From contig JAURHM010000017.1 in assembly GCA_030833315.1 (NCBI GenBank), forward strand, positions 1 through 53,355: a DNA stretch of 53,355 nt, in the 5' to 3' direction. This document shows positions 20,310 to 28,807 of the stretch, in pieces; positions within the stretch are counted from its first letter, which is position 1; every line of letters starts with the position of its first letter. The notes below the pieces were generated by a model, which saw nothing but the letters and a program-made list of their open reading frames with translations, had not been told where the DNA came from and ran no database searches. This DNA comes from Burkholderiales bacterium (GTDB lineage Bacteria; Pseudomonadota; Gammaproteobacteria; Burkholderiales; SG8-41). The translations under genes and the position numbers were made by a program.

Positions 20310-20457
20310 CGAGATTCCAATTTTCCCGGTTCCGATACGCACATTGCAAAACTCTGATCAGCCGTTCAATTTATAACACGCAACGACAAGCCACGCAGTC
20401 TTACAACGGCAACAGGTCTTCGTGCTACGATTGAAGCGCAACAATACAGGGGCTGTC

Positions 20458-21231
20458 ATGCGCATAACCACAAACATATTCATGGCTTTATTGTTGGCAA
20501 CGTCCGTAACAACGGTATGCGCCGCGACACCCGCCGAACAATACGAAAAATTCTGCACGATTTGCCACTTGCCCGGCTCTCATGGCGCGCCGAAGGTGGG
20601 AAACCATGACGCGTGGACGCAACGGCTGCGCTCCGGATTGAACTCAATCTATCGCAATGCCATTGAAGGCATTCCCAATACCACGATGCTGGCCAAGGGC
20701 GGCCAGGCCGGCCTTCCGGACTCCGAGTTTCGCGCCATTGTCGACTTCATGATTGCCGCAACCGCTCTGCCACCTTCGGTCATTTCCGATGCCAGACGTT
20801 ATGACCGGCTGGGACTGACCGACCGCGACTTCATCCGCCGCGACGTCAGCCGCGACGGCTACCTTTCACGTCAGGAAGTGGGCACCGATCCCGTGTTACT
20901 GAAAGGTTTTTCCCGCTTCGACATCAACCGGGACGGCCGACTCAGCGAGACCGAGTATCGCAACGCGGAAACTGCATTGGAACGGGAGCGAATAGCTGTC
21001 AATGCGGATGACGCCAGCTTGAACACGGCAGTCGGCAAAGCCCTCGCTGCGATAAAAGGCCTGAAAACCGAAGATGTGAAAATCGAGATCAGCGCAGGCG
21101 CGCTGGTGCTGTCAGGCGTGGTGGCACATCCTGGCCTCGCGATCGAGGCTCATGATGCCGTCAAACGCGTAGCGGGACTGAAAAGCATCCAGAACCGACT
21201 GATCACCGGCGACCAGATGGGCTGGGATTAA
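20458..21231 (+). CDS. Periplasmic cytochrome c - EF-hand - BON domain fusion protein
   Basis: A 257-aa exported protein with three modules. The signal peptide ends near TTVCAA. A c5-like monoheme domain has CTICH at residues 33-37 and a likely axial Met77 in NTTMLAKGG. A pair of EF-hand loops follows, both complete: DVSRDGYLSRQE (129-140) and DINRDGRLSETE (155-166). A C-terminal BON domain spans about 185-250 (VKIEISAGALVLSGVV). The heme suggests electron transfer, the EF hands calcium binding, and BON envelope or lipid association. The function is not known to me. The ATG at 20458 precedes the signal peptide directly. Confidence 0.85.
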   Translation: MRITTNIFMALLLATSVTTVCAATPAEQYEKFCTICHLPGSHGAPKVGNHDAWTQRLRSGLNSIYRNAIEGIPNTTMLAKGGQAGLPDSEFRAIVDFMIAATALPPSVISDARRYDRLGLTDRDFIRRDVSRDGYLSRQEVGTDPVLLKGFSRFDINRDGRLSETEYRNAETALERERIAVNADDASLNTAVGKALAAIKGLKTEDVKIEISAGALVLSGVVAHPGLAIEAHDAVKRVAGLKSIQNRLITGDQMGWD

Positions 21232-21299
21232 CCGGCTACAGCATTGTCTTTCGCGATCGGCAGTTCAAAATAAAATGTCGAGCCCTGGCCTTCGACGGT
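21228..21299 (-). pseudogene. Residual C-terminus of a histidine kinase
   Basis: In the 88-bp gap after the glycosyltransferase, one minus-strand frame reads TVEGQGSTFYFELPIAKDNA then VAG and a stop. GxGSTFYFELP is the end of the HATPase_c domain of hybrid and sensor kinases. A TAA (21300-21302) precedes it and there is no start, so only 24 codons remain. Its stop overlaps the stop of the convergent cytochrome gene. The likely origin is deletion of a kinase that paired with the response regulator at 24681-25079. Confidence 0.72.
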
Positions 21300-21319
21300 T
21301 TAGCTTGAATCCGCATGCG

Positions 21320-22756
21320 TCATTGACCGACTCCTTTATGGGGGCCGCCGGGACCGGTCTGCCAGCTGGCACTGCGGGGCATCTCGCCCCAATGTAATTT
21401 GAAATGGAACATCCAGAGCAACAGTGCCCAAAACCGCCATACTGAATTGAGCTGGCGGTAACCGAAGTTTTCCAGAACAACAACCAGCAGCAATACCACA
21501 ATCTGATGCGGTTTCTGATAGATGTGAAATGAAATTTCCTCGAGCAGCAGGGAATTTATCGACAGCACCAGACCGAGGCCGAAAGCTACCAGCATGAAGG
21601 TGACGAAAGCCTCCAGCGATACCAGCCCGGTAAAAAATGCCGTGATCATGAAACAGTAACCTGCCACCTCGACCAGCGGCCCCAGCCATTCAAACAAAAC
21701 CATGAACGGAAAGGCCAGCCAGCCGGCAGTGCCGCCGCGACGATGAAAAAGCAATCCGATATTCAGCGTCAGGCTTTCAATCAGTCCGCGCTGCCAGCGC
21801 ATCCGCTGGTTCTTCAATACAAGCAATTTTTGCGGCGCCTCGGTCCAGCAAACCGGATCAGGCACAAAAACAATACGATAGGGAATATTTCCGGTACGGT
21901 GTAGGCGATGCAGTCTGACGACGAGTTCCATGTCTTCACCCACGGTATCCGTGCGATAGCCGCCGGCTTTGACCACCACTTCCTTGCGAAAAACCCCGAA
22001 GGCCCCGGAAATGATCAGCACAGCATTGAGCGGCGACCACCCCAGACGTCCAAAGAGGAAGGCCCGCATATACTCGACGACCTGGAAAAGCGCCAGCGGA
22101 TTGCGCGGCAAGCCTTTACTGGTCAGGAATCCGCTGTCGAACGTGCAGCCGTTGGCAATACGAATGCTTCCCCCGGAAGCGATGGTATGCGGATTTTCGA
22201 GAAAAGGCTGGACTACCCGGCGCATACTGACCCGCTCCAGTACCGAATCCGCATCCACACTGCAAAACAGCGGGTAACGCGAGGCATTGATGCCGGCGTT
22301 CAGCGCATCCGCCTTTCCGCCGTTTTCCTTGTCGATGACGCGCAGCGTCGGATGCATCTTCGAACGGTAAATGGCCCGCACAGGCTTCACCGAAAGCCGC
22401 TGCCAGTAAGCCTCCGGGAAAGGCTCGAGACCAAATTCGCGGCGCAATGCCTCCATCGTCCCGTCCCTGGAACCGTCGTTGATGACGATCACTTCAAACT
22501 CGGGATAATCCAGCTGCAGAATCGAGCGCACCGAACTCGCAATCGTTACCTGCTCGTTATAGGCCGGCACCAGCACCGACACCGGAAGCTCAAAACCGGA
22601 AAGGCGGCTAGGAATATCATCCAGACTGTGCGCCTCGACATAACGCTTGAGACTGCCCAGCGACAGCAGATTCAGCATCAGATAACCGGTGTTGATACCG
22701 ATGAAATACAGCATGAAAAACCACTGCGCGCCTTCCACCCAGTCATTGACGGTCAT
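21320..22756 (-). CDS. Processive family 2 glycosyltransferase, polysaccharide synthase
   Basis: A 478-aa membrane glycosyltransferase of the PgaC/BcsA/hyaluronan-synthase type. After an N-terminal helix (about residues 10-30) come the GT2 motifs: VPAYNEQ, DGSRDGT, the DxD-like VDADS, the GEDME acid and QRMRWQRG (QxxRW). At least three C-terminal helices follow (about 360-450). This pattern is expected for synthesis coupled to export of a beta-linked polymer. The start overlaps the HEAT gene stop by 4 bp. It is the last intact gene of the RR-YaiO-HEAT-GT unit. Confidence 0.9.
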   Translation of the reverse strand: MTVNDWVEGAQWFFMLYFIGINTGYLMLNLLSLGSLKRYVEAHSLDDIPSRLSGFELPVSVLVPAYNEQVTIASSVRSILQLDYPEFEVIVINDGSRDGTMEALRREFGLEPFPEAYWQRLSVKPVRAIYRSKMHPTLRVIDKENGGKADALNAGINASRYPLFCSVDADSVLERVSMRRVVQPFLENPHTIASGGSIRIANGCTFDSGFLTSKGLPRNPLALFQVVEYMRAFLFGRLGWSPLNAVLIISGAFGVFRKEVVVKAGGYRTDTVGEDMELVVRLHRLHRTGNIPYRIVFVPDPVCWTEAPQKLLVLKNQRMRWQRGLIESLTLNIGLLFHRRGGTAGWLAFPFMVLFEWLGPLVEVAGYCFMITAFFTGLVSLEAFVTFMLVAFGLGLVLSINSLLLEEISFHIYQKPHQIVVLLLVVVLENFGYRQLNSVWRFWALLLWMFHFKLHWGEMPRSASWQTGPGGPHKGVGQ

Positions 22757-23868
22757 GACGAGCGAGCCTCAGCAATGGCCTGACCGAGAATGTCAGCAGC
22801 AAAGCGGTCTTCCAGCGTACCGCTTATTTTTTCCAGATCCTCGATACGGGTACCCGGCAGTGCCAGCAGCGCGCGCGCCGCACGATAACGGACCCACCAT
22901 TGAGGATCGCTTAGCATTCCGGTCAGTAGCCGACGGTCGGAGACATCGCCGATCCGCCCCAGAACCCGGATCGCGCTGACACGGACAAACCAGGCCTCAT
23001 GTGCAGCGTATGCACGGACAATATCCAGATCGCGCGGGTCCTGCACCAGACGCAACGCCGCAGCAATCAGTTCAGGACTCTTTACCTGACGCACAATCTT
23101 TCCGGCCACCGGCAACACACGCTCGGTATGCGCTACTTCCATCATGCGCAGCAGACGTGCCACCTGCGCTTCCGCACCTTTGCTGCTCGCCGTTGCTTCC
23201 ACAGCTGAAATCAGCGGTTGCGTGGCCACTTCCGGGCCCACCTCTTTGAGCATGGTCACGACACGCGACATCGGCCAGTCATCCCGGGCCGCCATCACCG
23301 TCACCAGCCAGGCCAGTATTGAAGAAGCATCAATGTCGAGTAATGCGCGGGCCGCCAGCAGGGACAGCACCGGCGACGGGTCGGAGACCAGCGCGCGCAA
23401 CTCATGCCATTGCGTGCGGTCACCGAGGTGGCCGAGGGTCATCACCGCAATCATCCGTTCCCGGAGGTTGCCCGTGTACATCAGCTCCCTGGCAATCTCC
23501 TCGAGATGCATTGCGCGGGCAAGCGCCTTGAGATTGGCACGAGAAGCGCCGACCAACGATTCATGATGGAAATTCCAGACCCTGAGAAAGTGGTACCGCA
23601 TGTTCCGCGATACCTGCGGCAGTTGTGCCGGAACAGCAAAAACACACTCGGCCAGCAACGGCTGCCACTGCGCTTCATAGAAGCGTTGACGGCGCTGACG
23701 GATCAGCACGCGGACACGCAACAGGAACACCAAAATCAGCAACAGCAAGGAAAAGATGATGGCGCCGATACCAAACATAAAAACCATTTGCAGCATCGGA
23801 TCCTGCGGCATCCATAAAGCCATCGCATCAGGCTCCAATACCACAGATAGGCTTTGATCCAGGGGCAA
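22753..23868 (-). CDS. Membrane-anchored HEAT-repeat protein
   Basis: A 371-aa protein with one transmembrane helix at about 28-50 (FGIGAIIFSLLLLILVFLLR), a basic segment, then a long alpha-helical region with HEAT-like repeats: RMIAVMTLGHLGDRTQW, PVLSLLAARALLDID, WFVRVSAIRVLGRIGDVSD and WWVRYRAARALLAL. It lies between the outer-membrane barrel gene (6-bp gap) and the synthase gene (ATGA overlap). It could be the inner-membrane scaffold that bridges synthase and outer-membrane exporter, in the place TPR domains occupy in PgaA, PelB or BcsC; that role is inferred from context. Confidence 0.82.
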   Translation of the reverse strand: MPLDQSLSVVLEPDAMALWMPQDPMLQMVFMFGIGAIIFSLLLLILVFLLRVRVLIRQRRQRFYEAQWQPLLAECVFAVPAQLPQVSRNMRYHFLRVWNFHHESLVGASRANLKALARAMHLEEIARELMYTGNLRERMIAVMTLGHLGDRTQWHELRALVSDPSPVLSLLAARALLDIDASSILAWLVTVMAARDDWPMSRVVTMLKEVGPEVATQPLISAVEATASSKGAEAQVARLLRMMEVAHTERVLPVAGKIVRQVKSPELIAAALRLVQDPRDLDIVRAYAAHEAWFVRVSAIRVLGRIGDVSDRRLLTGMLSDPQWWVRYRAARALLALPGTRIEDLEKISGTLEDRFAADILGQAIAEARSS

Positions 23869-23874
23869 CGGTGC

Positions 23875-24684
23875 TCAGAAACTGCGTCGAAGGCCGAGCT
23901 GTAGTCCCTGCCGGCGATAGAGCGTACCCTGTTCGTGCTGGATCAGGTCATAGGTTATTGCCAAGGACGGCGTAAACCAGTGCTGGCCGCTGACCGACCA
24001 GCTCTGCACATCGGTGGAAATCACACCGCGCGGCAGTCCAACGTTCTCGACCTCGCGTCCGTTGGCGTAAGACATGCCGATCGTGCTGCGGTCGTCATAG
24101 TAGTAACTGAGCTGCATACGGTGGCTGGCCGCCGAAGATGCGCCTTCCGGTCGCCCTGAATACAGAGTATAGGCGCCGCGGAAATTGCCCCAGTAGCGCT
24201 CGGCAAGCAGTGAAGCCACATTGCTTGCCGTTGCAGTGTATTCGTTGTGACGCAGCCCCAGACCCAGCCCCCATCCGCCCCGGAAGTTTTTCTGCAGAAA
24301 ACCGTAGACCGACCTTTGCGGCAGCACTTCATGCGTCGGGCTGTAACTGCCCTCGATGATGCCGCCCCAGCTCTGGCCCAGCGGAAAATACAGACCGGCA
24401 TGCGCCTCACTGTCTTTCAGCCCGAAACGCTCGGTTTCACGCAATCCGCCATAAACCGTCTGCCGCTCACCCAGCTTGCGGCTGCCCAGCAGATAGGTAT
24501 TGGTCCAGTCCGACAGATTATTGGACAGAGATTCGCGACCGTAACCTAACTCCAGCGCATTCAGCGGCAACTTGAGGCCTGTGCTCTCCGGCCGCGGCGA
24601 CGGCACATCCCCGGACGACGGTTGCGCCCCAGCTTGCAGGGAAACCAGCACGGCAGCACAAAGGAATCCCGCTTTGGCAGTCAC
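23875..24684 (-). CDS. YaiO-like outer-membrane beta-barrel protein
   Basis: A 269-aa exported protein with a signal peptide (AAVLVSLQAGAQ). It then shows alternating aromatic/polar strands typical of small outer-membrane barrels and ends in Phe (GLRRSF). Segments such as LELGYGRESLSNNLSDW and GGLRETERFGLKDSEAHAG resemble the YaiO family. It is a good candidate for the exporter pore of the polysaccharide made by the adjoining synthase. The start overlaps the response-regulator stop (ATGA). Confidence 0.8.
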   Translation of the reverse strand: MTAKAGFLCAAVLVSLQAGAQPSSGDVPSPRPESTGLKLPLNALELGYGRESLSNNLSDWTNTYLLGSRKLGERQTVYGGLRETERFGLKDSEAHAGLYFPLGQSWGGIIEGSYSPTHEVLPQRSVYGFLQKNFRGGWGLGLGLRHNEYTATASNVASLLAERYWGNFRGAYTLYSGRPEGASSAASHRMQLSYYYDDRSTIGMSYANGREVENVGLPRGVISTDVQSWSVSGQHWFTPSLAITYDLIQHEQGTLYRRQGLQLGLRRSF

Positions 24685-25079
24685 ACTGATAATTTGGATT
24701 CCTTCACCAGACGCCTGACGCGTGAAAGCAGCTCATCCGGCTTGAACGGTTTGACCATATAATCGGCCGCTCCGGAATCCAGGGCGCGCACGATGTCTTT
24801 TTCCTGTGACTTCGCCGTCAGCATCAGCACCGGTACGGTTTCCCAGCCCTGCTTGGCCCGGATCGCCGCCAGCAGCTGGTAACCGTCGACAAAAGGCAGC
24901 ATGACGTCCAGCAGCGCCAGCGCCGGCGGCGTGCCGTTGATGATCAGATCCTGTGCAACGCGGCCATCGCTGGCCACCTCAACCTTGAAATCTTCGCGCT
25001 CAAGGATGAATCGCAGCAGATAAGCAATCTGGTCATCGTCTTCGACAACCAGCACCGTTCTTGGTGTTTCGCCCGTCAC
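24681..25079 (-). CDS. Single-domain response regulator (CheY-like)
   Basis: A 132-aa stand-alone receiver domain. The acidic pocket is EDD (residues 13-15), the phosphoacceptor is Asp58 in LALLDVMLP, and the switch Thr and Lys are in LMLTAKSQ and MVKPFKPDE. There is no output domain, so it must act by protein contact or in a relay. It is the first gene of the exopolysaccharide unit. No intact kinase is nearby, only the tail at 21228-21299. Confidence 0.95.
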   Translation of the reverse strand: MTGETPRTVLVVEDDDQIAYLLRFILEREDFKVEVASDGRVAQDLIINGTPPALALLDVMLPFVDGYQLLAAIRAKQGWETVPVLMLTAKSQEKDIVRALDSGAADYMVKPFKPDELLSRVRRLVKESKLSV

Positions 25080-25220
25080 GGAATTCCCATTTTTTTCAAT
25101 AATTACAAACTATTAACTGCAGCTTTTTATTTACAAATATGATACCACTTCACATTCCGGCCAACCATGTTTGGCCGCAGAGCACGAGCTGAACCTCGGC
25201 ATTTTACAGGCTCGGAAACA
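25080..25220. promoter_or_regulatory. Divergent AT-rich control region of the polysaccharide locus
   Basis: This 141-bp gap separates the response-regulator unit (minus) from the deacetylase pair (plus). Positions 25088-25145 are strongly AT-rich. A TATGAT hexamer for the plus direction is at 25138-25143, without a convincing -35. Both transcription units probably start here. Confidence 0.4.
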
Positions 25221-27098
25221 ATGCAACGCCCATTGCTACGGATCATCCTCGGCTTCACTGCCGCCGCAATGCTGGCGGCAGCCGTGTTTTTTATTGCCCG
25301 CAAGCCGGACAACGCGGTTTTCCCGGGAATCAGTGGCCCGGAAGCTTCCACTACCGTGTCCCGGAACGTGCCGGTAGAGTGGAAACAATATGACCATGCC
25401 GCCCCCGGCGCCATGGCCATACTGCTGACCAATCCTGACTCTAGCTGGCTGGGCCTCGCACATGGTCTGAAAACCATCGGCGTGCCCTTCCGTATCACCA
25501 CCGATGTCAAAACAGCGCTTCAGCACAAAGTAGTCATGGTTTATCCCACGATTTCCGGCAAAGTCCTGAATCAGGAGAGTCTGCAGGCACTGGCTGCATT
25601 CCCCCGTGAAGGCGGCACACTGATCGGCTTTGATGTCGCCGGTGGCGGATTGGAGCCGGTATTCGGTTTTTCGGAAACCGGCAGCGACCGCAGTCGCATG
25701 GCCCTGCACATCGACACGAATCAGGCCGTCACTGCCGAATTCACCGACCCGCGGGAGCGGATCATCCCGTTGAACGGCTCGAAACGGTCCGGCGACGATA
25801 TGGGTGTAGTCAGTTACAGCCAGCCACGCTTCCCGCCGCTGGCAACCTACGACAACGGGGCGGCAGCAATCCTGCACCGGGCCGTTGGCAAGGGACACGC
25901 TTACGCCATCGGCCTCGACATCGGCTTTTTCCTGCTCAAGGGCTACAACAACCGCCAGCAGGGAATCGCACGCAGCTACGTCAATGACTTTGAACCCGCA
26001 TTAGACGTATTGCTTCGTCTGCTGCGCAACATCTATCGCCAGGGCGAACCCGATGCAGTGACCCTCGGCACCGTGCCGCAGGCCAAGTCGCTCTCTGTGA
26101 TATTGACCCACGACATTGATTACACGGAATCAGTACGCAACGCGCTGGTATACGCCCAGCACGAAAAACAGTCTGGAATTTCAGCGACCCATTTCATCCA
26201 GACAAAATACATCCGCGACTGGAACGACGATGTGTTCTTCAAGCCGGAACTGGTTGACACCATCGACCGCATCGCCGCACTGGGCATGGAAATCGCCAGC
26301 CATTCGGTATCCCATTCCCGCGTATTCAGCAAATTTGAACTGGGAAGCGGCCGCGAACAATACCCGCAGTACCAGCCTTTCGTGCGCGACGCCGAACATA
26401 CCGAAAACGGCACTGTGCTCGGCGAACTCCGTGTCAGCCGCTTCCTGCTCGGTCACCTGACCAAGGGCGGTGATCCGGTCAGCTTCAGACCTGGCCACCT
26501 GCAAAATCCGTTCTCGCTGCCACAGGCGCTGGAAGCCAGCGGCTTCCGCTACAGTTCCTCGGTGACTGCCAACACGGCACTCACCCATCTTCCCTTCCGT
26601 CTGGCCTATGGCCGGGAAACCAAGGCGCAGACGGCGATTTATGAATTTCCGATCACCATTGAAGATGAACACAAACCGAAACTCGGTGACCGGCTGCCGC
26701 AGGCGCTGGCTGTCGCCGATCGTGTCAGTCGCTACGGCGGTTTGTACGTCGTGCTGATCCACCCCAATGTACTCGACCACAAGCTTGACTTTCAGAAACG
26801 CCTGGTTGCAGCACTGAAAAACCGTGCCTGGTTCGGATCGCTGCGCGATTTCGGAGCCTGGTGGACTGCGCGTGACCAGATCACCTGGCAGGTGCAATAC
26901 GAAGGCCGGCGACGCACGCTGCTGCTAGAATCGCCGCAGCCGATCAGCGACCTCGTCCTGCAACTGCCGAAACACTATCGGCTGGTCAAAACAACACCCG
27001 AAACCGTAACAACTCCTTCTGCAGGATCGTCCCTGCTGATTTCAAAAATAACCGGCCCCCTGAAACTCGAATTCGAAACAGCAGGGGCAGCGCCATGA
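25221..27098 (+). CDS. Membrane-anchored polysaccharide deacetylase with GATase/flavodoxin-like domain
   Basis: A 625-aa protein. One N-terminal helix (about 5-25) anchors it facing the periplasm. A GATase/flavodoxin-like domain follows (about 65-275; MAILLTNPDSSWLGLAHGL, GKGHAYAIGLDIGFFLL). A NodB-type deacetylase domain begins near 285, with metal/catalytic motifs THDIDY (297-300 region), HSVSH (His361 and His365) and FRPGH. The last 70 residues look like a beta-sandwich. The flavodoxin-like plus deacetylase order recalls the C-terminal part of PelA. The start at 25221 precedes the anchor directly with GGA nearby; an upstream ATG at 25167 has no ribosome site. It is coupled to the next gene (ATGA overlap). 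Confidence 0.85.
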   Translation: MQRPLLRIILGFTAAAMLAAAVFFIARKPDNAVFPGISGPEASTTVSRNVPVEWKQYDHAAPGAMAILLTNPDSSWLGLAHGLKTIGVPFRITTDVKTALQHKVVMVYPTISGKVLNQESLQALAAFPREGGTLIGFDVAGGGLEPVFGFSETGSDRSRMALHIDTNQAVTAEFTDPRERIIPLNGSKRSGDDMGVVSYSQPRFPPLATYDNGAAAILHRAVGKGHAYAIGLDIGFFLLKGYNNRQQGIARSYVNDFEPALDVLLRLLRNIYRQGEPDAVTLGTVPQAKSLSVILTHDIDYTESVRNALVYAQHEKQSGISATHFIQTKYIRDWNDDVFFKPELVDTIDRIAALGMEIASHSVSHSRVFSKFELGSGREQYPQYQPFVRDAEHTENGTVLGELRVSRFLLGHLTKGGDPVSFRPGHLQNPFSLPQALEASGFRYSSSVTANTALTHLPFRLAYGRETKAQTAIYEFPITIEDEHKPKLGDRLPQALAVADRVSRYGGLYVVLIHPNVLDHKLDFQKRLVAALKNRAWFGSLRDFGAWWTARDQITWQVQYEGRRRTLLLESPQPISDLVLQLPKHYRLVKTTPETVTTPSAGSSLLISKITGPLKLEFETAGAAP

Positions 27099-28807
27099 TG
27101 CAAACCTGCCACCTGCCCTGGCTGTTGCTGATGATCAGCACCGCATCGCCTGCAGCATGGCTCGGCACCTGCCCGGGCGCGCTACAACAGCCAGGCATCA
27201 AGGTGCTTGATACACTGCTCCAAGCAGGCGGCAGCCGCATCACTGTCGTCGCTGCGGAGAATCGCATACCCGACTGCAACATGACAGAAATCCCGGTGCC
27301 TGCTGACCGGCTGCGCTGGGTGCGCATGCTCAATCGCAAGGAAGCAGATGCACTTTCGCGCGGCATCATTATTAAAAATTCCCGTGGTGAAACCCGGAAC
27401 GGCCTTCCACAGGAAATCATCCCGCTTCAGGACAGCTCTCCTGCTCCTGCTCCTGCTCCGGCATCGGTCCCGATCGGCGCAGAATTGCTGCCGCAACTCA
27501 AAGGCACTGTCTTCGGCCGCGAAAACCGCGCCGTACTTCGACAGGACGGCGCCAGCCTGCGGCTCGAATGCGCGGCCGGTCAGGCAGCAGCCGGCGCGCT
27601 CGTTGCAAGCCCGACCGACTTACGATTGCCCGCGGGCGCCACGGTCGCACTAAAACTCGACACCTCGGCGGAAGGCGTCTTCCGCATCGGCGCAGCCGAT
27701 GCTGCAAGGGAAAAAATCGGTGAATCGCTCACCCTCGGCAGCATCCAACCCGGAGAACGCAGCAGCGGCTTTGCCCTACCCACCGGGCTGGACAAGGCGA
27801 CCTGGCGCCTCTGGGTGATCGAGTGTCCGGAATCCGCAGCGCAGCTCTCGATCCGTTCAGCGCGCCTTGAAGCGCAGCCGGCCGGAGAAACCCCGCCTCG
27901 CTCACTTTGGGTGTGGGAACCTTCCGTCTGGCAACTAAACACCGCCTCCACAATGACACTATTGGCCGCCTATGGCGCCGACACCATATTCGTTACAGTG
28001 CCGCTGGATTCCGCAAAGGAAAACGTCACCGATGCGGCGTCGCTGCAACGTTTCATTGCTGCCGCTGCAGCACGCGGCGTCAAGGTCTGGGCGGTGATCG
28101 GCGACCCTCTTGCCGTATTACCGACCGAACGCGATCAGTTCGCCAAAATGGCCCGTGCTTATACGACCTATAACCGGGATTCGCCGGTAGAGGCGCGCCT
28201 GTCCGGACTGCAGCTCGACATCGAACCCTATCTCAACAGCGGCTATCAGCTCGACACCGAAGAATGGCTCGCCGCTTATCTCGACACACTGGCGCGGGTA
28301 CGCACTCAGGCGATGATGCCGCTTGATGTGGCCGTGCCATCCTGGTGGGGACGACAGCGCTACCGCAACAGCCTGTTCCTCGATCACCTCGGCTCGCAAA
28401 TTGATGTGGTGTCGGTGATGAATTACCGAACCGACCGCCAGCAGCTGATCGATCTTGCCGAACCCTTCCTCGAATGGGGGGTGCGCGCCAAAAAAACAAT
28501 TCGCATCGGACTCGAAGCCGGCCCCATCCCCGATGAATCTCTGCATGTATTCCGTGCCGGCAGCAATGGTGACTTGTGGCTATTGCCGCTGGGCGACAAC
28601 AATCTGCTGGTGTCGCTCGATGCGGCACAGGCATATTCCGCAGCACGCGTATTTACCTATTCGCACAGCATCACGCGCCAGGGAACGAATACCACCTTTC
28701 ACCGCAATATCGGCGCGATGCAGAAACTGCTGCCGCAACTGGAAACGGTGTGGCGTGCATGGCCGTCATTTGGCGGCATTGCGCTGCACGGACTCGACGC
28801 CGACTAA
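27095..28807 (+). CDS. Exported TIM-barrel glycoside-hydrolase-like protein
   Basis: A 570-aa exported protein with signal peptide (LPWLLLMISTASPAAWLG), a small N-terminal region, a Pro/Ala linker (SSPAPAPAPASVP, about 112-124), a beta-sandwich of carbohydrate-binding type (about 135-270), and a C-terminal domain from about 280 with TIM-barrel character: LWVWEPSVW, YGADTIFVTVPLD, GVKVWAVIGD, GLQLDIEPYL, PLDVAVPSWW and VVSVMNYRTD. Asp and Glu of LDIE are candidate catalytic acids. Together with the deacetylase it resembles a split PgaB or PelA, which combine a hydrolase and a deacetylase in one chain. The exact GH family was not recognised. Confidence 0.75.
   Translation: MMQTCHLPWLLLMISTASPAAWLGTCPGALQQPGIKVLDTLLQAGGSRITVVAAENRIPDCNMTEIPVPADRLRWVRMLNRKEADALSRGIIIKNSRGETRNGLPQEIIPLQDSSPAPAPAPASVPIGAELLPQLKGTVFGRENRAVLRQDGASLRLECAAGQAAAGALVASPTDLRLPAGATVALKLDTSAEGVFRIGAADAAREKIGESLTLGSIQPGERSSGFALPTGLDKATWRLWVIECPESAAQLSIRSARLEAQPAGETPPRSLWVWEPSVWQLNTASTMTLLAAYGADTIFVTVPLDSAKENVTDAASLQRFIAAAAARGVKVWAVIGDPLAVLPTERDQFAKMARAYTTYNRDSPVEARLSGLQLDIEPYLNSGYQLDTEEWLAAYLDTLARVRTQAMMPLDVAVPSWWGRQRYRNSLFLDHLGSQIDVVSVMNYRTDRQQLIDLAEPFLEWGVRAKKTIRIGLEAGPIPDESLHVFRAGSNGDLWLLPLGDNNLLVSLDAAQAYSAARVFTYSHSITRQGTNTTFHRNIGAMQKLLPQLETVWRAWPSFGGIALHGLDAD

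What the first reader, a model, noticed from the sequence alone, without database searches (positions are those of the whole stretch)
21228..28807. Possible new synthase-dependent exopolysaccharide system mixing Pga- and Pel-like parts
Two divergent, internally coupled units encode a response regulator, YaiO-like outer-membrane barrel, membrane-anchored HEAT-repeat protein and processive GT2 synthase (ATGA overlaps or a 6-bp gap throughout), and a membrane-anchored deacetylase plus an exported TIM-barrel hydrolase-like protein (ATGA overlap). PgaB and PelA join hydrolase and deacetylase in one chain, and PgaA/PelB/BcsC join TPRs to a barrel. Here each function is a separate protein, and HEAT repeats stand where TPRs usually do. 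The deacetylase also carries a GATase/flavodoxin-like domain like PelA. The synthase, deacetylase and barrel calls come from motifs; the joint system is inference.
Basis: partly seen in the sequence, partly recalled or inferred. Interest (0 to 1): 0.8.

Follow-up and report, generated by a model that had tools for sequence, protein, structure and literature searches.

The report
Polysaccharide synthase system with HEAT adaptor
Six neighbouring genes look like a machine that makes, modifies and exports a sugar polymer; its core recurs in many bacteria and pairs the polymer-making enzyme with an unusual membrane-bound signalling adaptor, a combination we did not find described in the papers we searched.

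Summary
The six genes are real and belong together. With the HEAT protein as query, a PgaC-like GT2 synthase lies next to it in 25 of 26 other genomes (the miss is a contig end). The rest recurs elsewhere: two Nitrospira loci hold all six kinds in another order, and one Clostridium locus has HEAT-GT2-TIM. In the window's genus the system comes in graded forms at one site: core (RR-YaiO-HEAT-GT2), core plus TIM, core plus DAC and TIM. HEAT repeats are predicted cytoplasmic (92 of 95 homologues) and coexist with TPR-YaiO barrels, so they do not replace periplasmic TPRs. The exported protein is a TIM barrel with GH18-like motifs and a jelly roll, without a detectable match to PgaB. A receiver usually accompanies HEAT-GT2 (53 of 78 loci). 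Best reading: synthase-dependent exopolysaccharide machinery whose synthase is gated by a phosphorelay through a membrane-anchored HEAT adaptor, with optional tailoring enzymes. Polymer, gating and enzyme activities are inferred. New variant of a known kind.

The parts
24681..25079 (-). Stand-alone receiver (REC) response regulator, 132 aa, no output domain
   Evidence: Pfam Response_reg only; D14, D58 and K110 conserved in 57, 57 and 59 of 59 HEAT-linked receivers
23875..24684 (-). YaiO-family outer-membrane beta barrel, 269 aa, no TPR match
   Evidence: PF19413, TIGR04390
22753..23868 (-). Inner-membrane anchored HEAT-repeat protein, repeats predicted cytoplasmic
   Evidence: HEAT_2; positive-inside pattern in 92 of 95 homologues; GT2 adjacent in 25 of 26 other genomes found with HEAT as the query
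21320..22756 (-). PgaC-related GT2 synthase, 478 aa
   Evidence: Pfam GT2; TIGR03937 PgaC 139 bits, below its cut-off of 422; VDADS, GED and QRxRW motifs (motif meaning recalled); mean column identity 71% over 10 sequences
25080..25166 (.). A+T-rich divergent intergenic region (GC 0.32), possible shared promoter region
   Evidence: composition; promoter function inferred, not tested
25167..27098 (+). Membrane-anchored deacetylase: N-terminal TM, probable GATase/ThuA-like domain (about 80-260), CE4 domain, C-terminal beta sandwich
   Evidence: PF01522; D316, D318, H379, H383, R441, H532 invariant in 6 of 6 (catalytic roles recalled); model and fold hits
27095..28807 (+). Exported hydrolase-like protein: signal sequence, N-terminal beta domain (about 20-112), CBM29-like jelly roll (about 136-260), TIM barrel with GH18-like motifs (about 265-570)
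   Evidence: model pLDDT 93, Foldseek, D375, E377, M442, Y444 invariant in 30 of 30

Best explanation
This is a synthase-dependent exopolysaccharide system. The GT2 synthase polymerises a sugar in the cytoplasm and threads it through the inner membrane (inferred from its family). The HEAT protein is anchored in the inner membrane with its repeats in the cytoplasm and sits with GT2 (shown: conserved adjacency, predicted topology; inferred: physical contact). The phosphorylatable receiver binds HEAT and so switches the synthase on or off (inferred). In several genus members a histidine kinase gene lies directly behind GT2 and probably phosphorylates the receiver; no close copy of that kinase was found in the window genome. 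YaiO lets the chain out through the outer membrane (inferred). The anchored CE4 enzyme removes acetyl groups in the periplasm and the TIM barrel with its binding module trims the chain (both inferred). DAC and TIM are optional; other lineages have a sulfatase-fold protein beside TIM instead of DAC. An amino-sugar polymer is likely because the synthase, the deacetylase and the GH18-like barrel point the same way, but this is not shown.
For: HEAT as the query: 14 of 14 full-length homologues outside the window in 300 order genomes have GT2 directly downstream; of 13 outside the window in 369 class genomes, 12 have GT2 adjacent (one convergent) and one is a contig end; one genome is in both sets. 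GT2 as the query (the 80 best kept from a capped list; 78 after dropping two already held): HEAT directly upstream in 68, in the locus in 75; receiver 53, YaiO 52, TIM 24, DAC 6, the six DAC loci all with TIM (hypergeometric p 5e-4, not corrected for kinship; four of the six are Nitrospira-like). TIM as the query: of 4 other class genomes with a strong TIM (E below 1e-20, a line I drew afterwards), 3 have HEAT, against 10 of 364 (Fisher p 1.4e-4). In the 13 genus genomes drawn, TIM is in 5 of 7 with HEAT and 0 of 6 without (p 0.016). All six lie together in four genus members (window, L187, L188, L190) and in Nitrospira L079 and L082 in another order. Topology. Receiver: 60 of 84 receiver hits just upstream of HEAT score 94 bits or more, against 3 of 53 elsewhere; D58 in 57 of 59; in other phyla the gene before HEAT is often a larger protein ending in this receiver. 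Kinase behind GT2. GT2-HEAT distance correlation 0.92 over 59 loci (confounded by species kinship).
Against: No biochemistry: polymer, donor sugar, deacetylation and hydrolysis are not shown, and REC-HEAT-GT2 contact is untested. The receiver profile was built from 8 receivers of this set, so its score gap is partly circular near the window. Weak TIM relatives do not go with HEAT: 0 of 9 class genomes with weak TIM hits have it. G462 keeps DAC-TIM on another contig than its core. 26 of 78 loci gave no YaiO hit, among them four Massilia loci, and seven order loci have HEAT-GT2 without receiver or YaiO. Four of 95 HEAT proteins have a second hydrophobic stretch. TIM has Arg (MxYR) where GH18 enzymes have Asp (MxYD, recalled), so it may not be active as a GH18-type hydrolase. 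The DAC model is of moderate confidence. The window genome has no match at E <= 1e-60 to the kinase of its sister species.
Confidence: 0.72

Rival explanations
1. HEAT is only an assembly or stability factor for GT2, and the receiver serves another process (a phosphate sink or a chemosensory relay), so there is no phosphorelay gating of the synthase.
For: Five of 78 loci show HEAT-GT2 with no other hit, and seven order loci have HEAT-GT2 without receiver or YaiO (L044-L046, L048, L050, L052, L055). HEAT repeats are general scaffolds (recalled).
Against: HEAT-linked receivers score as one group across phyla and keep their phosphorylation residues; in multidomain proteins the C-terminal receiver is the one before HEAT.
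Confidence: 0.25
2. A Pga- or Pel-type system whose parts were split into separate genes, the HEAT protein doing the work of the periplasmic TPRs.
For: PgaC-related GT2, CE4-type deacetylase, probable GATase-like domain.
Against: HEAT repeats are predicted cytoplasmic and coexist with TPR-YaiO. Profiles of TIM, DAC, HEAT and YaiO give at most 4 bits with E. coli PgaA, PgaB and PgaD (single-sequence templates). The genome has no TIGR03938 PgaB or PF16933 PelG match (the control genomes rang in both searches).
Confidence: 0.1
3. TIM is not a hydrolase but a polymer-binding or guiding protein: a barrel with a changed GH18-like site plus a binding module.
For: MxYR instead of MxYD in 29 of 30 members (His in L154), and a CBM29-like jelly roll.
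Against: D375 and E377 are invariant in 30 of 30; four members match the recalled GH18 signature exactly.
Confidence: 0.3

Closest known systems
Pga/PNAG system (PgaABCD, E. coli)
   Same: GT2 of the PgaC kind (104 bits with the GT2 profile); a periplasmic deacetylase and a barrel hydrolase in the scheme (PgaB, recalled); an outer-membrane barrel
   Different: No convincing match to PgaA, PgaB or PgaD; deacetylase and barrel are separate proteins; HEAT plus receiver instead of PgaD
Pel system (PelA; recalled)
   Same: Deacetylase with a GATase/flavodoxin-like domain, and a hydrolase barrel
   Different: No PelG match in the genome; two proteins instead of one; PelA itself not compared here
E. 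coli yaiO-yaiX-yaiP-yaiS cluster
   Same: YaiO barrel, a GT2 (YaiP) and an annotated deacetylase (YaiS) in one locus
   Different: No HEAT or receiver gene among the annotated genes; YaiP 42 bits with the GT2 profile, YaiO 7 bits with the YaiO profile, YaiS below zero with the DAC profile
Mxd-like loci (GGDEF-like protein, GT2, HlyD, TolC-like; the name Mxd is recalled)
   Same: Carry a distant TIM-family domain near a GT2
   Different: No HEAT hit in the loci scanned; HlyD/OEP and TackOD1 proteins instead
PDB 10yv, 'Putative GH97 from Cellulomonas fimi'
   Same: Solved relative of the TIM family (profile E 5.5e-24)
   Different: 275-residue chain, so without the extra domains; no paper seen; function not known to us

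Membership tests
Synthase-dependent exopolysaccharide systems (general kind) | Membrane GT2 of the processive type encoded with an outer-membrane barrel and periplasmic modifying enzymes | tested here: met
   Gene content only; polymer synthesis and export not shown
Pga/PNAG | PgaC equivalog score | tested here: not met
   TIGR03937 139 bits, cut-off 422
Pga/PNAG | Two-domain PgaB (CE4 + GH153) | tested here: not met
   No TIGR03938 match in the genome; TIM and DAC profiles do not match PgaB (single-sequence template)
Pga/PNAG | PgaD and a TPR-barrel PgaA | tested here: not met
   HEAT against PgaD about 3 bits and YaiO against PgaA about 1 bit; window YaiO has no TPR match. PgaA and PgaD were not searched for in the whole genome
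Pel | PelG transporter | tested here: not met
   No PF16933 match in the genome
Pel | PelA-like hydrolase + deacetylase chain | not tested
   PelA was not compared
CE4 deacetylase (DAC) | Metal-binding His/Asp triad and catalytic residues in a NodB-type domain | tested here: met
   PF01522 above cut-off; residues invariant in 6 of 6 (roles recalled); CE4 chains among the fold hits
GH18 (TIM) | TIM barrel with a DxxDxDxE-like motif | tested here: inconclusive
   Best E-values go to a GH10 xylanase with a binding module; chitinases and SleL rank 10 and below with TM 0.28-0.30 on the query, and GH20 barrels score alike. D375 and E377 invariant; exact signature in 4 of 30, not in the window protein; Pfam GH18 E 0.08 in 1 of 30; profile against a chitinase E 0.016
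GH18 (TIM) | MxYD motif (recalled) | tested here: not met
   MxYR in 29 of 30, MxYH in L154
YaiO outer-membrane family | TIGR04390 / PF19413 | tested here: met
   124 bits (cut-off 32) and 70.7 bits (cut-off 23.9)

The most novel reading that the evidence does not exclude
A cross-phylum module (receiver, membrane-anchored HEAT adaptor, PgaC-like GT2) in which a phosphorelay directly gates a polysaccharide synthase at the membrane, instead of or beside c-di-GMP binding by the synthase; it has been combined repeatedly with different export and tailoring parts (YaiO or TPR-YaiO, deacetylase, sulfatase-fold protein, a TIM barrel of a family that Pfam does not hold).
Probability: 0.4. Interest if true: 0.78.

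Novelty: new variant of a known kind. Interest (0 to 1): 0.63.

Why it matters
Known synthase-dependent systems are mostly described as controlled by transcription and by c-di-GMP (recalled). A receiver-HEAT-synthase module found in Proteobacteria, Nitrospira, Clostridium and Solirubrobacter records would be a second, phosphorylation-based way to switch matrix polymer synthesis, and would give testable roles to HEAT, TIM and GT2 genes in many environmental bacteria. The graded forms within one genus (core, core plus TIM, core plus DAC and TIM) make the role of each tailoring enzyme directly testable.

Tried and rejected
HEAT as a stand-in for periplasmic TPRs: rejected by predicted topology and by coexistence with TPR-YaiO. 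Stutzerimonas 'sea' cluster (PMC12125118; outline and abstract, passages, sections 12 and 27 seen): its Discussion says this polymer was called pel in strain A1501, so I did not take it as this system; gene contents were not compared. The 'pgaC' word hit there was pGacS. Xanthomonas xagABCD (PMC3609779, 12 of 17 passages; PMC4643136, passages): the xag-like cluster of iron oxidisers has a BcsB-like gene; no evidence that it is the same, sequences not compared. PMC12419801 (passages) and PMC12691653 (passages, outline, abstract): not relevant. Ten full-text searches (three of them on narrow leads) showed no description of a HEAT-GT2-receiver-YaiO system; several listings were cut (20 of 53, 10 of 25, 15 of 29, 20 of 230), and other hits were seen as listings only. 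Subscription papers and preprints are not covered. The first scan of named genomes with the single TIM protein found nothing. Foldseek on the whole TIM chain gives low global TM scores because of its three domains; only 50 rows were shown, so the absence of GH153 or GH166 entries among them is not a test.

Dropped rows: eight genomes with partial HEAT hits (E 9e-7 to 7e-4) were not counted. In one search L075 and L095 were dropped as copies of L043 and L059; L151 and L152 (one strain, two records) were both kept there; one search dropped L075, L095, L115 and L152. L187 and L076 seem to be one contig (equal length), and so do L195 and L109; the tallies by HEAT, by GT2 and by TIM therefore share some genomes. 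The 95 HEAT proteins include such copies. The weak TIM hits of G238 and G545 were not fetched. The DAC of L082, split into two ORFs, was left out of alignment A5.
Full report
Observation. GT2 is related to PgaC but far below the PgaC cut-off (139 against 422 bits).

The core is conserved. I used HEAT as the query so that the test would not depend on the other genes. In 300 genomes of the order there were 14 full-length homologues outside the window, and all 14 have GT2 directly downstream; seven also have receiver and YaiO upstream (L042, L043, L047, L049, L051, L053, L056), seven do not (L044-L046, L048, L050, L052, L055). In 369 genomes of the class there were 13 outside the window; 12 have GT2 adjacent (one convergent) and the other is a contig end. 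G107 is in both sets, so this is 25 of 26. From the other side, the 80 best GT2 matches kept from a capped scan of named genomes, less two already held, carry HEAT directly upstream in 68 of 78 and somewhere in the locus in 75; receiver 53, YaiO 52, TIM 24, DAC 6, sulfatase-fold protein 7. These loci are not independent: seven are Stutzerimonas/Pseudomonas and several are Nitrospira. They include Massilia, Lysobacter, Stenotrophomonas, Methylobacter, Nitrospira, Bacteroidota, Gemmatimonadota, Clostridium and Solirubrobacter records; many are metagenome bins whose labels may be wrong.

DAC and TIM are optional. In the 13 genus genomes drawn, HEAT occurs in 7, and TIM in 5 of those 7 and 0 of the other 6 (p 0.016). 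Four (window, L187, L188, L190) have all six genes in the same divergent order beside the same TauD-like gene; L189 has TIM without DAC; L042 and L207 have the core with TauD next to it. Nucleotide comparison of the window with L042 shows collinear flanks with about 3.8 kb in the window facing about 180 bp in L042. DAC was found only with TIM: 6 of 6 GT2-picked loci and 2 of 2 genomes among 300 of the order. In Nitrospira (L079, L082) DAC, TPR-YaiO and TIM lie in a row between receiver-HEAT and GT2 (the DAC of L082 is split). In Stenotrophomonas the order is HEAT, GT2, TPR-YaiO, sulfatase-fold protein, TIM. One Clostridium locus (L150) and one Bacillota bin (L139) have HEAT-GT2-TIM without a YaiO hit, as expected if YaiO serves an outer membrane. 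Less clear cases: G462 keeps DAC-TIM on another contig than its core; in G601 TIM with YaiO and sulfatase-fold genes lies on one contig and receiver-HEAT-GT2 on another; in G232 the TIM match has stops and lies at a contig end. At genome level in the class, 3 of 4 other genomes with a strong TIM have HEAT against 10 of 364 (p 1.4e-4), but 0 of 9 with a weak TIM do; the line between strong and weak (E 1e-20) was drawn after seeing the list.

HEAT looks like a cytoplasmic adaptor, not a periplasmic scaffold. Of 95 HEAT proteins (some are copies of one genome), 92 have more Lys+Arg in the 15 residues after the TM helix than before it, 3 are equal and none reversed (means 5.0 and 0.6); four have a second hydrophobic stretch. 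TPR-YaiO coexists with HEAT in several lineages. A receiver like the window's is usually upstream: 60 of 84 receiver hits just upstream of HEAT score 94 bits or more, against 3 of 53 elsewhere, two of which lie divergently beside HEAT. The profile was built from eight receivers of the window's wider group, so the gap informs mainly on other phyla, where the gene before HEAT is often a larger protein ending in this receiver, several with Hpt, a second receiver or GGDEF domains (ten proteins scanned, nine of them of this kind). The phosphoacceptor Asp is kept in 57 of 59 and the Lys in 59 of 59. A CHASE-PAS histidine kinase gene lies directly behind GT2 in five genus members (L042 = G319, L076 = G697, G682, G693, G701), and a hybrid kinase lies before the receiver in Stutzerimonas L105. 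The window genome has no match to that kinase at E <= 1e-60, so its receiver may take phosphate from another kinase. Distances of GT2, HEAT and receiver correlate strongly (0.81-0.92 over 59 loci), but shared species history explains part of this.

TIM. In 30 members D375, E377, P378, M442 and Y444 are invariant. The model (pLDDT 93) shows an N-terminal beta domain, a jelly roll and a TIM barrel. The best Foldseek E-values go to a GH10 xylanase with a binding module (TM 0.24-0.26); GH18 chitinases and SleL come from rank 10 on with slightly better TM (0.28-0.30 on the query, up to 0.51 on the target), GH20 barrels score alike, and the jelly roll matches CBM29. Sequence favours GH18: the motif is GLQLDIEP in the window and FDGVNLDIE in some relatives, which fits the recalled GH18 signature in 4 of 30; a chitinase is the next PDB profile hit (E 0.016). 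The second motif is MxYR rather than MxYD. A solved relative exists, 10yv from Cellulomonas fimi, labelled 'Putative GH97' (E 5.5e-24). Weaker relatives of TIM sit in another kind of locus: a GT2 is present in 8 of 8 class loci fetched, and in the loci whose proteins I scanned there are TackOD1/GGDEF-like, HlyD and, in two, OEP proteins. In several the TIM domain ends a protein of about 700 residues whose first part I read as TolC-like, although the one scanned (L163) had no Pfam match.

DAC.

Known systems. The genome has no match to PgaB (TIGR03938) or PelG (PF16933). Profiles of TIM, DAC, HEAT and YaiO give at most 4 bits with E. coli PgaA, PgaB and PgaD, while GT2 matches PgaC at 104 bits. 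E. coli has a YaiO-GT2-deacetylase cluster without an annotated HEAT or receiver gene; its deacetylase does not match DAC. Ten full-text searches showed no description of this system (listed in Tried and rejected).

Verdict. A real, conserved and, as far as searched, undescribed variant of synthase-dependent exopolysaccharide machinery. Shown: gene association, predicted topology, conserved catalytic and phosphorylation residues, a confident model of TIM. Inferred: the polymer, the export route, gating by the receiver through HEAT, and the activity of DAC and TIM.

Noticed in passing
L155-L159, L161-L164, L061: Distant TIM-family domains occur near a GT2 in loci with HlyD, TackOD1/GGDEF-like and (in L061, L156) OEP proteins, often at the end of a protein of about 700 residues: a second polysaccharide-type locus using a related barrel.
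   Followed up: partly
L059/L095, L060, L098, L108, L110, L113, L114, L119, L160: A sulfatase/alkaline-phosphatase-fold protein lies beside TIM in place of the deacetylase, suggesting a different decoration of the polymer (for example phosphoethanolamine or phosphoglycerol, a guess).
   Followed up: partly
window 20422-21320: The CHASE-PAS histidine kinase gene found behind GT2 in sister species is not here; a cytochrome c/EF-hand/BON protein gene (20422-21231 +) faces GT2 instead, and the genome has no match to the kinase at E <= 1e-60.
   Followed up: yes
PDB 10yv_A: A solved Cellulomonas fimi protein labelled 'Putative GH97' is a relative of the TIM family, for which no Pfam model was hit.
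   Followed up: partly
L112: A record titled Klebsiella pneumoniae (a metagenome bin) carries receiver-YaiO-HEAT-GT2; the label may be a binning error.
   Followed up: no
L050, L052, L055: A small protein (118-123 aa; TPR by Pfam in L050, the others by clustering) is coupled to HEAT-GT2 without YaiO or receiver hits; in L052 the neighbours are housekeeping genes. A reduced form of the module.
   Followed up: no
L128, L131, L139, L143, L150, L153: HEAT-GT2 pairs in Halolactibacillus, Alkalibacterium, Clostridium and another Bacillota bin, some with TIM or receiver, so the module also occurs in bacteria without an outer membrane.
   Followed up: partly
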